A stretch of 64,000 nt of DNA from Leptotrichia hofstadii (GTDB lineage: Bacteria > Fusobacteriota > Fusobacteriia > Fusobacteriales > Leptotrichiaceae), in assembly GCF_007990525.1 (NCBI RefSeq), contig NZ_AP019823.1:2294001-2358000 (forward strand), read 5' to 3'. Under the pieces are notes generated by a model that did not search any database, was not told the origin of the DNA, and was given only the letters and a program-made list of their open reading frames with translations. Made by a program: the position numbers and the translations under genes. Position 1 is the first letter of the stretch, and every line of letters starts with the position of its first letter. Positions 10,453-41,225 of the stretch are shown here, piece by piece.

Positions 10453-10528
10453 TGGTGCCCAGACGCGGAATCGAACCACGGACACAGGGATTTTCAGTCC
10501 CTTGCTCTACCGACTGAGCTATCTGGGC
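10453..10528 (-). tRNA. tRNA-Phe (GAA)
   Basis: Full cloverleaf on the minus strand: acceptor GCCCAGA with TCTGGGC, anticodon loop CTGAAAA (anticodon GAA), T-loop GGTTCGATTCC and encoded CCA. Last gene of an eight-tRNA operon. Confidence 0.97.
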
Positions 10529-10538
10529 ATATTATATA

Positions 10539-10624
10539 TGGCGGGTGAACTGGGATTCGAACCCAGACATCTTGCGATTTCGCCGGTTTTCAAGACCGGT
10601 CCCTTACCGTTCGGACATCCACCC
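10539..10624 (-). tRNA. tRNA-Ser (UGA)
   Basis: Minus-strand cloverleaf with acceptor GGGTGGA with TTCACCC, discriminator G, long variable arm (class II), anticodon loop CTTGAAA (anticodon TGA) and encoded CCA. Confidence 0.97.
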
Positions 10625-10706
10625 GCAACTTTAATAAAATAATTAAACACTGTAAATTATCTAAAAAAAATACCACAATTTTAAATTATGGTTCTAAAAA
10701 AATAAA

Positions 10707-10781
10707 TGGTACGGCCTAGGGGGATCGAACCCCTGTTACCGGGATGAAAACCCGAGGTCCTAACCACTAGACGAAGGCCGC
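10707..10781 (-). tRNA. tRNA-Glu (UUC)
   Basis: Minus-strand cloverleaf with anticodon loop TTTTCAT (anticodon TTC), T-loop GGTTCGATCCC and encoded CCA. The acceptor closes with a G-U pair at position 1-72. A gap of about 80 bases separates it from tRNA-Ser, the widest in the cluster. Confidence 0.97.
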
Positions 10782-10794
10782 ACAAGTTTTTCAA

Positions 10795-10871
10795 TGGTGG
10801 ATCCAGCTGGACTTGAACCAGCGACCGCTCGGTTATGAGCCGAGTGCTCTAACCAGCTGAGCTATGGATCC
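10795..10871 (-). tRNA. tRNA with CAU anticodon (Ile2 or elongator Met)
   Basis: Minus-strand cloverleaf with acceptor GGATCCA with TGGATCC, anticodon loop CTCATAA and encoded CCA. The stretch GGTCGCTGGTTCAAGTCCAG is like that of tRNA-Ile2, whose CAU is modified to lysidine-AU to read AUA. Elongator tRNA-Met has the same anticodon, so sequence reading alone does not settle it; initiator Met is unlikely because the acceptor pairs fully at 1-72. Confidence 0.9.
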
Positions 10872-10874
10872 ATA

Positions 10875-10951
10875 TGGCGTGCCTGAAGAGATTCGAACTC
10901 CTGGCCCACGGCTTAGAAGGCCGTTGCTCTATCCAACTGAGCTACAGGCAC
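10875..10951 (-). tRNA. tRNA-Arg (UCU)
   Basis: Minus-strand cloverleaf with acceptor GTGCCTG with CAGGCAC, discriminator G, anticodon loop CTTCTAA (anticodon TCT, reading AGA/AGG) and encoded CCA. Confidence 0.97.
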
Positions 10952-10968
10952 ATATGGTTAAATTTAGA

Positions 10969-11044
10969 TGGTGAGCCATACTGGGATCGAACCAGTGACA
11001 CCTTGATTAAAAGTCAAGTGCTCTACCGACTGAGCTAATGGCTC
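10969..11044 (-). tRNA. tRNA-Lys (UUU)
   Basis: Minus-strand cloverleaf with acceptor GAGCCAT with ATGGCTC, anticodon loop CTTTTAA (anticodon TTT), T-loop GGTTCGATCCC and encoded CCA. Confidence 0.97.
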
Positions 11045-11050
11045 ATATTT

Positions 11051-11126
11051 TGGAGCGGGAGACGAGGGTCGAACTCGCGACATTCAGCTTGGAAGGCTGA
11101 CGCTCTACCAACTGAGCTACTCCCGC
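11051..11126 (-). tRNA. tRNA-Gly (UCC)
   Basis: Minus-strand cloverleaf with acceptor GCGGGAG with CTCCCGC, discriminator T, anticodon loop CTTCCAA (anticodon TCC) and encoded CCA. Confidence 0.97.
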
Positions 11127-11140
11127 ATAATATGATTTCG

Positions 11141-11228
11141 TGGTGCCTCGGGCCGGACTTGAACCGGCACGGGATAAATTCCCACAGGATTTTAAGTCCT
11201 GTGCGTCTACCGATTTCGCCACCAAGGC
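11141..11228 (-). tRNA. tRNA-Leu (UAA)
   Basis: Minus-strand class II cloverleaf with acceptor GCCTTGG with CCGAGGC, long variable arm, anticodon loop CTTAAAA (anticodon TAA) and encoded CCA. First gene of the tRNA operon; a consensus promoter lies about 45 bases upstream. Confidence 0.97.
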
Positions 11229-20786: not shown

Positions 20787-21227
20787 ATTTCCCTCCATAA
20801 TTTTTATTTATTATTTTTTTAAATTCCATATCTTTTATATAAGTATAACACACGTATATTAAAAGTAAATGAGGGTTTTTATTTTTATTTCAAAATAAAA
20901 TTAATCAAAAGAATTAAAAATTTTTGTCCTTTGTTGGAAAAGTTTGTAATAAATTTGTTATTTAAATGGAGTTTAGTATTAAAGTACAAATCTCAAATAA
21001 AATATCTACTATGTTTTAAAAAAATTGCAATTCGTTTTTTATCAAAATATTTTAAATTACATTGTAATATTTAGATATAATTTTATTTTTTATTAAATTT
21101 TTTTCAGAAATAGAAAAAGCAATTTGTATTCCAGATTAAAATATTGTATAATAAAAATATAAAAAGAACACAAATAGTTAATACATAATATGAAATAAAT
21201 ATTTAAAATAAAAGGAGATGATATGCG
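20787..21227. other. Non-coding region with a partial repeat and the cassette 2 leader
   Basis: Positions 20921-20982 are a partial, inverted copy of the outer end of the large hairpin repeat (compare 41165-41225). Positions 21025-21227 are the conserved leader of lipoprotein cassette 2. The remainder is featureless AT-rich DNA. Confidence 0.7.
21124..21152 (+). promoter_or_regulatory. Promoter of small lipoprotein gene, cassette 2
   Basis: TTGTAT (21124-21129), 17 bases, TATAAT (21147-21152), identical in sequence and spacing to cassette 1. Confidence 0.8.
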
Positions 21228-21404
21228 ATGTTTAAGAAAATTTTACTCATGATTATACTTGTTATGTCCGTCGTGGGATGTGAACTGCTTGATCCTAAAG
21301 GTTGGAAAGAAGCAGAACAGGATGCTGCTGAAAGAGAAGAAACATGTTATAGAAGGGCTGATGGAATTGTCTACTGCAAGGATAAATATGGAAATGTCTA
21401 TTAG
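21228..21404 (+). CDS. Small lipoprotein (cassette 2)
   Basis: A 58-residue member of the repeated family. Signal MFKKILLMIILVMSVVGCE has its lipobox Cys at residue 18. The mature part keeps the Trp-Lys-Glu-Ala core (GWKEAEQDAAE) and the two tail cysteines (ETCYRRADG, VYCKDKYGN). The residues just after the lipidated Cys differ from the others (ELLDPK instead of SAHD), so this is the most diverged of the three tandem-style copies. Function unknown. Confidence 0.75.
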   Translation: MFKKILLMIILVMSVVGCELLDPKGWKEAEQDAAEREETCYRRADGIVYCKDKYGNVY

Positions 21405-21469
21405 CTATATGTGACGTGGAAAAGATAAGATGGATAACAATGGTTTAAAAGCTATGAAATACATACAGA

Positions 21470-21644: not shown

Positions 21645-21732
21645 AAAAATATAAAAAGAACACAAATAACTAATACATAAAACAGAATAAATATCTGACA
21701 TAGATATTTAAAACAGAAGGAGATGATATGCA

Positions 21733-21912
21733 ATGTTTAAGAAGATTTTGCTCATGGCTATACTTACTGTGGCAATTATTGGATGCAGTGCACGTGATAT
21801 TGCCCTATGGAAAGAAGCGGAACAGGAAAGAAGAGAAGAAGGTAGAAGATGTTATAGAAGGGCTAACGGAGAAGCCTACTGCGTAGACAAGTACGGAAAC
21901 AGGACATACTAG
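21733..21912 (+). CDS. Small lipoprotein (cassette 3)
   Basis: A 59-residue member of the family with signal MFKKILLMAILTVAIIGCS (Cys at residue 18). Its mature part CSARDIALWKEAEQERREEG and tail cysteines (RRCYRRANG, AYCVDKYGNRTY) are very close to cassette 1. The start is chosen by conservation with the other copies rather than the earlier out-of-frame ATG at 21728. Function unknown. Confidence 0.8.
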   Translation: MFKKILLMAILTVAIIGCSARDIALWKEAEQERREEGRRCYRRANGEAYCVDKYGNRTY

Positions 21913-21924
21913 CTATATGTGATA

Positions 21925-21968: not shown

Positions 21969-22010
21969 GAGTAAATATTCTATTTCTATTCTGTCTGATA
22001 CTATTTCCCA

Positions 22011-22362
22011 TTTAAATAACAAATTTATTACAAACTTTTCTAATTAATAAAGTATATAAACCTAATTTTTTCAAGTAATTTAAGATATAATTTTCACCTT
22101 TTAAATAGATTCTAGTATGAATTAATTTGTCGGAGCATTTTTCTGTGCTGGCAAAACTGTTTGAGCATAGTGAGTTTTTTGTCAGTGCAGAAAAATGTCG
22201 TAGACTAGCCATAGGTTGTAGGATTTGCGGCAATGAGCAATCCTACGAAAAGAAAAAGAAAAAACATAATAATATGAAAAAATATTTATTAATTAAAATA
22301 TATAAAAAATAATTTAATTTAATAATTACGAATTAGCTATTAAACAACCCTATTATGAAAAT
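22011..22362 (+). repeat. Large hairpin repeat, copy A
   Basis: Repeat that starts TTTAAATAACAAATTTATTAC and runs through a long hairpin (arms 22136-22158 and 22173-22197) and a second conserved hairpin (GTAGGATT ... AATCCTAC, about 22217-22246). It ends near the words CTATTAAACAACCCTATTATG. Copies B and C lie at 28969-29242 and 40872-41225. No gene is supported inside it, although short reading frames cross it. Confidence 0.85.
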
Positions 22363-28836: not shown

Positions 28837-28962
28837 TAATTGTTTTTTCTTATACTATACTCAAACCTATTTAAAATTAAACTACTAAAAATTATATAGA
28901 TTTAGGGTTTGATTAAAATAGTCATAACTTTTGAGTTTATTTTTAAAGCAGTTTTACTATAA
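28837..28962. repeat. AT-rich dispersed repeat D, copy 1
   Basis: About 125 bases beginning AATAATTGTTTTTTCTTA and ending near CAGTTTTACTATA. A direct copy lies at 29275-29400 and a third, more diverged, at 44663-44770. Copies 1 and 2 flank copy B of the hairpin repeat on both sides. Confidence 0.8.
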
Positions 28963-28968
28963 ATCCTA

Positions 28969-29242
28969 TTTAAATAACGAATTTATTACAAACTTCTCCA
29001 ATAAAGGATAAAAACCTAGTATTTCAAAATAATTAAAATATAATTTAATAAACCGACGGAGCTTTTATTTGTTCAACTGCGACTGTTTGACGACTGTAAG
29101 GAGGAGTTTCGGAGTTGGGCAAATAAAAGTCGTAGTCTAGCCATAGGTTGTAGGATTTGCGGCAATGAGCAATCCTACGAAAAGAAAAAATTAAAAAGTT
29201 GAATAATTATGAACCAGCTATTGAACAACCCTATTATAAAAA
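28969..29242 (+). repeat. Large hairpin repeat, copy B (hairpin arms replaced)
   Basis: Same flanks as copies A and C (TTTAAATAACGAATTTATTAC at the left, AGCCATAGGTTGTAGGATTT and CAATCCTACGAAAAG at the right). The central arms are different: CTTTTATTTGTTCAACT (29062-29078) pairs with AGTTGGGCAAATAAAAG (29113-29129). No gene is supported in 28660-29488. Confidence 0.85.
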
Positions 29243-29274
29243 ATTTATTCTCATTTTTAAACGGAAGATAATAT

Positions 29275-29400
29275 AATAATTGTTTTTTCTTAATTTTATA
29301 CTCAAATCTATTTAAAATTAAACTACTAAAAATTATACAAATTTAAGGTCTGAGTAAAATAGTCATAACTTTTGAATTCAGTTTTAAAGGAGTTTTATAT
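29275..29400. repeat. AT-rich dispersed repeat D, copy 2
   Basis: Direct repeat of 28837-28962; shared words include CTATTTAAAATTAAACTACT and AAAATAGTCATAACTTTTGA. Confidence 0.8.
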
Positions 29401-40768: not shown

Positions 40769-40871
40769 TTTTATCTCCTTTTTGAAACTTGCTATTGTTA
40801 GATTATACTACAAATTTTTAAAAATACAAAATTTATAATAAAACTCATTTAAAAATAGAAATTAATTCTTA

Positions 40872-41225
40872 TAATAGTATTGTTTGATACCTTCAACTAA
40901 ATTGTTTTTTATTATTTTTCGCTCATTTTGATTAATAAATATTTTTCCATATTACTATATTTTTTCTTTTTTATTTTCGTAGGATTGCTCATTGCCGCAA
41001 ATCCTACAACCTATGGCTAGTCTACGACATTTTTCTGTACTGGCAAAAAACTCGCTATGCTCAGACAGTTTTGCCAGTACAGAAAAACGCTCCGACAGAT
41101 TAATTTACATTAGAATCTGTTTAAAAGATGAAAATTATATCTTAAATTACTTGAAATATTAGGTTTTTATCCTTTACTATAAAAGTTTATAATAAATTCG
41201 TTATTTAAACAGAGTTTAGTATTAA
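40872..41225 (-). repeat. Large hairpin repeat, copy C
   Basis: Inverted relative to copies A and B. It has the conserved GTAGGATT...AATCCTAC hairpin (40980-41008) and a central perfect 19-bp inverted repeat: TTTTTCTGTACTGGCAAAA (41030-41048) with TTTTGCCAGTACAGAAAAA (41069-41087). The flank GTTATTTAAACAGAGTTTAGTATTAA also occurs at 20960-20982. No gene lies in 40769-41300. Confidence 0.85.

What the first reader, a model, noticed from the sequence alone, without database searches (positions are those of the whole stretch)
22011..22362. Dispersed repeat with conserved flanks but interchangeable, self-complementary hairpin arms
Seen: three copies (22011-22362, 28969-29242, 40872-41225). Outer flanks and a second hairpin (GTAGGATT...AATCCTAC with AGCCATAGGTT) are nearly constant. 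The central arms are TTTTTCTGTACTGGCAAAA-like in copies A and C but CTTTTATTTGTTCAACT in copy B, and in each copy the opposite arm changes to match. Independent substitutions that keep pairing imply selection on, or copying of, a folded DNA or RNA. It could be a non-autonomous mobile element mobilised by a hairpin-recognising transposase (IS200/IS605-like), or a structured RNA with a variable recognition stem.
Basis: partly seen in the sequence, partly recalled or inferred. Interest (0 to 1): 0.72.

Follow-up and report, generated by a model that had tools for sequence, protein, structure and literature searches.

The report
Leptotrichia mobile repeat with swappable hairpins
A short mobile DNA repeat scattered through Leptotrichia genomes carries an RNA-like hairpin whose two arms change together and are swapped between copies, and the tip of that hairpin recurs, on different arms, in many genomes of the order Fusobacteriales, which hints at an undescribed family of folded RNAs of unknown function.

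Summary
The three window copies belong to a family of about 25 intact and about 50 total or partial copies in this Leptotrichia genome, found in 11 of 12 congeners examined. Each copy is a composite miniature inverted-repeat element (MITE) with inverted repeats TACTAAACCCCATTTAAA and TNA targets; one insertion is caught with a clean empty site. No autonomous partner was found. The 'interchangeable arms' are two subfamilies (F1, F2) present across the genus; their arms align without gaps and differ by paired substitutions. At orthologous insertion sites, F1/F2 arms and short/long second hairpins are exchanged while flanks stay constant, so copies recombine. Arm mismatches are G·U rather than A·C on one strand (23:2 over 12 families), pointing to an RNA (or one DNA strand) as the constrained molecule. 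Individual F1 copies decay almost randomly, so the constraint acts on spreading lineages. The hairpin tip ACTGTYTGAGC…GCGAGTTT recurs on unrelated self-complementary arms in 27 of 98 Fusobacteriota genomes and is not in Rfam. An IS200/IS605-type mover is not supported: Y1 transposases do not track the hairpins. Function is unproven; I favour a MITE-borne structured RNA recognised at its tip.

The parts
21999..22362 (+). Copy A: composite MITE, F1 arms, short hairpin 2. 5' inverted repeat at 21999-22016; the 3' inverted repeat is lost. The right end may continue to about 22420 as the 3' end of another MITE type (inference from sequence similarity).
22137..22196 (+). Copy A hairpin 1: 5' arm 22137-22156, tip 22157-22176, 3' arm 22177-22196; closing pairs GTC 22129-22131 with GAC 22203-22205
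22218..22246 (+). Copy A hairpin 2, short form (GTAGGATT...AATCCTAC)
28957..29275 (+). Copy B: composite MITE, F2 arms, short hairpin 2, degenerate inverted repeats, lying between two copies of a second MITE family
29063..29128 (+). Copy B hairpin 1: 5' arm 29063-29082, tip 29083-29108, 3' arm 29109-29128; closing pairs GAC 29055-29057 with GTC 29135-29137
29150..29178 (+). Copy B hairpin 2, short form
40836..41221 (-). Copy C: composite MITE, F1 arms. Inverted repeats at 41204-41221 (5' end) and 40836-40853 (3' end, degenerate); flanks TTA/TTA
41029..41088 (-). Copy C hairpin 1: 5' arm 41088-41069, tip 41068-41049, 3' arm 41048-41029; nearly perfect palindrome
40979..41007 (-). Copy C hairpin 2, short form

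Best explanation
The repeat is a composite MITE of Leptotrichia. Its 5' part (about 115 bp) also exists as a free-standing MITE; its 3' part supplies the other inverted repeat. SHOWN: inverted repeats TACTAAACCCCATTTAAA, preference for TNA targets, an insertion with a TGA/TGA duplication and clean empty sites in sister species, many copies at different sites, and exchange of hairpin 1 (F1/F2) and hairpin 2 (short/long) at orthologous sites while flanks stay constant, i.e. recombination or gene conversion between copies. SHOWN: the central module keeps one two-hairpin fold through paired substitutions while unpaired stretches (GGAGC, GTCGTAG, CTAGCCATAGG) stay nearly constant, and arm mismatches are G.U rather than A.C on one strand. 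INFERRED: the ends are moved in trans by a transposase not identified here. INFERRED: the constrained molecule is an RNA read from the plus strand of the element, and its conserved tip ACUGUYUGAGC...GCGAGUUU is bound by a cellular partner, so only lineages that keep the fold keep spreading, while each inserted copy decays close to neutrally. The tip-bearing hairpin belongs to a class dispersed across Fusobacteriales of which the Leptotrichia MITEs are one carrier.
For: Copy numbers and genus restriction. Ends and targets; TNA-type triplets on the left of 47 and on the right of 44 of 50 elements, 3-bp flank identity 24/50 against 16.5 shuffled. Clean insertion with TGA duplication in G002 versus G009. 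Arm and hairpin-2 exchange at fixed sites A and C. Structure. Strand asymmetry: sum of family means 23.1 G.U against 2.4 A.C over 12 families, raw 333 against 43. Near-neutral decay of single F1 copies: 27 distinct single changes, 9 other, 7 G.U, 6 Watson-Crick, 5 A.C. Tip in 27 of 98 genomes and 10 of 29 genera, up to 88 per genome, control pattern almost always 0. No Rfam family.
Against: No transcript data. No promoter or terminator above shuffled expectation in copy A. No orientation preference relative to neighbouring genes after orthologous sites were collapsed, where one might expect one for an RNA read from a neighbour. The paired changes between F1 and F2 amount to one lineage split. 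A hairpin of one particular DNA strand also tolerates G.T better than A.C, so RNA is favoured but not proved. The 12 families are not fully independent (one is a single outlying F1 copy). No autonomous transposon with these ends was found.
Confidence: 0.6

Rival explanations
1. Ordinary MITE with a passenger palindrome: the arms stay self-complementary because of DNA processes (hairpin-templated repair, cruciform, gene conversion of palindromes), with no function of the fold.
For: Individual F1 copies decay nearly randomly with respect to pairing. Hairpin 1 can be lost entirely (L173, L185) or replaced by an unrelated stem (L147) while the element remains recognisable. Copy C is a near-perfect palindrome, as templated repair would give.
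Against: Arm copying restores Watson-Crick pairs and cannot prefer G.U over A.C on one strand (23.1 against 2.4). Unpaired stretches are more constant than the stems, and the tip is shared by unrelated arms across an order.
Confidence: 0.25
2. The hairpins are ssDNA substrates of a Y1 (IS200/IS605 or RAYT-like) transposase, as for REP/REPIN elements, and the element moves by that route.
For: Hairpins with short conserved flanks (GGAG at the 5' foot, GTAG at the 3' foot of F1) recall GTAG-tagged REPs (PMC3733652). One-strand constraint also fits an ssDNA substrate.
Against: Copies are bounded by inverted repeats with TNA target sites. Hairpin-rich genomes G007, G009, G010, G042, G045 (14-35 tips each) have no Y1 match, while G006, G032 and G055 have 4-8 Y1 matches and no tip. 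GGAG is absent from families F3 and F4.
Confidence: 0.05
3. Host-domesticated regulatory hairpin at gene 3' ends (mRNA stabiliser or transcription barrier), spread by MITE movement and kept by selection on the host.
For: 62 of 93 classified neighbours present their 3' end to the element, and 0 of 38 fully classified sites lie between divergent genes.
Against: No orientation preference, no terminator-like T-run, near-neutral decay of single copies, and presence or state of the element varies between sister species at the same site. Avoidance of promoters is expected of any tolerated insertion.
Confidence: 0.1

Closest known systems
BOX elements of Streptococcus pneumoniae (boxA-boxB-boxC) and other structured bacterial MITEs such as Correia/nemis, RUP, ERIC (from general knowledge)
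   Same: Short, non-coding, dispersed in intergenic DNA, modular ends with a variable folded centre, no transposase of their own
   Different: Different sequence; here the centre carries lineage-specific arms with paired substitutions, a tip shared across an order, and documented exchange of centres at fixed sites
REP/REPIN elements with RAYT transposases (PMC3116915, PMC3733652)
   Same: Dispersed hairpins with short conserved flanks, many copies per genome
   Different: Bounded by inverted repeats with TNA targets; no Y1/RAYT correlation
IS5-family IS1031 group (TNA target duplication; from general knowledge)
   Same: 3-bp TNA target duplication, suggesting the kind of transposase that could move the ends
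   Different: DDE_Tnp_1 (PF01609) insertion sequences found in the genus and inspected here have other ends; no partner identified
IStrons (PMC4227781)
   Same: A structured RNA carried by a DNA transposon
   Different: No group I intron or other Rfam family is detected

Membership tests
MITE | Short, no transposase gene, terminal inverted repeats | tested here: met
   Inverted repeat TACTAAACCCCATTTAAA at both ends of about 100-460 bp elements with no transposase inside
MITE | Target-site duplication and empty sites | tested here: met
   TGA/TGA duplication around a 115-bp MITE in G002, with empty sites in sisters; 3-bp identity 24/50 against 16.5 by shuffling, weak on its own because targets are nearly always TTA or TAA
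MITE | Related autonomous transposon with the same ends | tested here: inconclusive
   None found among TIR-bounded stretches or PF01609 loci of 13 genomes; other transposase families were not searched
IS200/IS605-derived or REP/RAYT element | No terminal inverted repeats; subterminal hairpins processed as ssDNA | tested here: not met
   Terminal inverted repeats and TNA targets present
IS200/IS605-derived or REP/RAYT element | Y1 transposase present where the hairpins amplify | tested here: not met
   No association across 60 genomes
Known structured RNA family (Rfam 15) | Covariance-model match | tested here: not met
   No match at gathering cut-off in the window or at E<=3 over ten loci, apart from one chance hit
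Structured RNA (general) | Paired substitutions and one-strand G.U tolerance | tested here: met
   F1/F2 changes are largely one lineage split
Structured RNA (general) | Expression as RNA | not testable with these tools
   No RNA-seq available

The most novel reading that the evidence does not exclude
An undescribed, order-wide class of mobile hairpin RNAs in Fusobacteriales: a conserved tip (ACUGUYUGAGC...GCGAGUUU) recognised by an unknown protein or RNA partner, mounted on arms whose sequence is free as long as they pair, and hitch-hiking in different carriers, among them Leptotrichia inverted-repeat MITEs.
Probability: 0.35. Interest if true: 0.72.

Novelty: new variant of a known kind. Interest (0 to 1): 0.52.

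Why it matters
If the folded strand is an RNA, this links a mobile DNA repeat to a widespread structured RNA with a fixed tip and free arms, and gives natural swap experiments (same site, different arms) in which to look for its partner. It also gives a simple comparative test, G.U against A.C mismatches by strand, for telling RNA hairpins from DNA palindromes in repeat families.

Tried and rejected
Rfam, gathering cut-off on the window and E<=3 on ten loci: nothing relevant. Hairpin-recognising Y1 transposase: no correlation. DDE_Tnp_1 insertion sequences as the autonomous partner: other ends, and one such insertion sequence sits inside a MITE. Copies on plasmid and phage records: none for the Leptotrichia element. 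Own promoter or terminator in copy A: none above shuffles. Orientation bias relative to genes: an apparent bias (50:13) vanished after collapsing orthologous sites. Literature: no description of this repeat found in the held open-access library. Several folds (L252, L254, L267, L270) were run on the strand opposite the tip and are not used as evidence.

Full report
What is there. The three copies are confirmed. The window lies in a 2.6-Mb Leptotrichia genome: the core pattern hits only Leptotrichia records in the named genome collection. In this genome the 352-bp query has 53 matches and the core CTAGCCATAGGTTGTAGGATT occurs 25 times, with 0 for the reversed control. It occurs in the own genome and 10 of the 12 other genomes of the genus as listed (the tool's tally counts 11 genomes with a match), and in none of 27 genomes outside it.

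Ends. Aligned copies end in inverted repeats TACTAAACCCCATTTAAA. The 5' part alone exists as a free-standing 112-bp element (L078), so the repeat is modular. Of 50 TIR-bounded elements, 47 have a TNA triplet on the left and 44 on the right (my count from the triplet tallies). Identity of the flanking 3 bp is 24/50 against 16.5 for shuffled flanks; this is weak alone because nearly all targets are TTA or TAA. The strongest case is G002: a 115-bp element inserted into the larger repeat with TGA on both sides, the sister genome G009 having the uninterrupted sequence. No transposase lies between any pair of ends inspected. The DDE_Tnp_1 insertion sequences examined have other ends, and one of them sits inside a MITE.

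Two arm families, not free variation. Every core-bearing copy read carries either F1 or F2, apart from two copies with hairpin 1 deleted (L173, L185), one with an unrelated stem in its place (L147) and one truncated copy (L062). F1 and F2 align column for column apart from a 6-nt indel in the tip. On 54 copies the two-hairpin structure pairs in 97.2% of cells, against 85.6% shuffled and 38-51% slid. Twelve pairs have changes on both sides; ten are in hairpin 1 and mostly distinguish F1 from F2, so they are many paired changes on essentially one split. Hairpin 2 also has a U-A to C-G change in 8 sequences and exists in a short and a long form.

Exchange at fixed sites. At site A, G009 carries F2 arms and the long hairpin 2 where the own genome has F1 and short, with the same idiosyncratic 3' end and flank. 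In G001 the same site holds an F2/long element, a small lipoprotein gene and the 5' half of a second element, so recombination between neighbouring copies is a simple route to the G009 state. At site C, G009 and G010 share flanks and ends (403/412 identical positions) but differ by the short or long hairpin 2. The element lies in opposite orientations in different species at site C (own, G004, and a remnant in G008, against G002, G007, G009, G010, G011); inversion and replacement cannot be told apart. G003 looks like an empty site there by eye.

RNA or DNA. Aligning each 5' arm with the complement of its 3' arm, without favouring either mismatch type, gives G.U against A.C on the tip strand of 333:43 over 164 distinct hairpins, and 23.1:2.4 as the sum of means over 12 arm families. 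DNA-level arm copying or a double-stranded palindrome predicts equality. A fold of one strand predicts the excess; RNA is the simplest reading, a specific ssDNA strand the alternative. Among recent single changes within F1 there is no such excess (7 G.U, 5 A.C, 6 Watson-Crick, 9 other). I infer that the fold constrains the lineages that spread, and that inserted copies then drift.

Wider class. The tip ACTGTYTGAGC...GCGAGTTT is found in 27 of 98 Fusobacteriota genomes and 10 of 29 genera, with up to 88 copies in G012 and patchily between sister species (0-1 in most g14 genomes, 21 in G077); the control pattern gives 0-1. The arms differ between families and genera but remain self-complementary. 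Tip stems also vary in pairs, such as GCC/GGC and GCAC/GTGC. Two further Leptotrichia families, F3 and F4, share the tip on other arms. Genome G058 is probably Ilyobacter, since its hairpin matches 17 places on an I. polytropus plasmid at about 93%. Only two exact tip matches occur in the viral collection. No Rfam family matches.

Context. After collapsing orthologous sites, 62 of 93 classified neighbours face the element with their 3' end, none of 38 fully classified sites lies between divergent genes, and there is no orientation preference. Neighbours were called as the nearest open reading frame of 90 codons or more, so individual assignments may be wrong. Copy A shows no promoter or terminator above shuffles.

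Verdict. The composite MITE with recombining central modules is well supported. Constraint on one folded strand is supported. That it is an RNA, and that a partner binds its tip, is inference. The IS200/IS605 idea is disfavoured.

Noticed in passing
window 28858-28959 and 29299-29399: Two copies of a second, about 101-bp inverted-repeat element (ends TACTCAAACCTATTTAAA) flank copy B on either side.
   Followed up: partly
window 21200-21410 and 21730-21915: Two paralogous small lipoprotein-like genes with similar upstream and downstream sequence lie in tandem before copy A, each followed by a terminator-like hairpin and T-run; the region differs between sister species.
   Followed up: partly
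L234 (G000:C1:1184189-1187220), L241; G000:C1:2267252/2267407; G001:C1:45568/45705: F3 and F4 hairpins occur as divergent pairs about 110-150 bp apart, as if sharing a central region that could be a bidirectional promoter.
   Followed up: no
L096 (G000:C1:2449441-2452857) about 1045-1960: An IS5-like insertion sequence (ends AGACCTGTTCGATAA) is inserted inside one of the MITEs.
   Followed up: partly
L147 (G003:C1:440434-441854) about 610-700: Hairpin 1 is replaced by an unrelated perfect stem (AAAAATAGCACAA...TTGTGCTATTTTT) with the rest of the core kept.
   Followed up: no
L307-L345 (G058, G050): The long tip hairpins of these genomes are followed by a second hairpin GGTTACTTTTCTTTCAAGAGAAAAGTAAC, and some copies look mosaic between two arm types, with the switch near the tip.
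   Followed up: partly
window 10456-11228: Cluster of eight tRNA genes on the minus strand.
   Followed up: no
window alignment A1 columns 88-92 and 113-118: The constant GCCAU upstream of hairpin 2 could pair with its loop (AUGAGC), a possible pseudoknot or alternative fold; invariant, so untestable by covariation.
   Followed up: no
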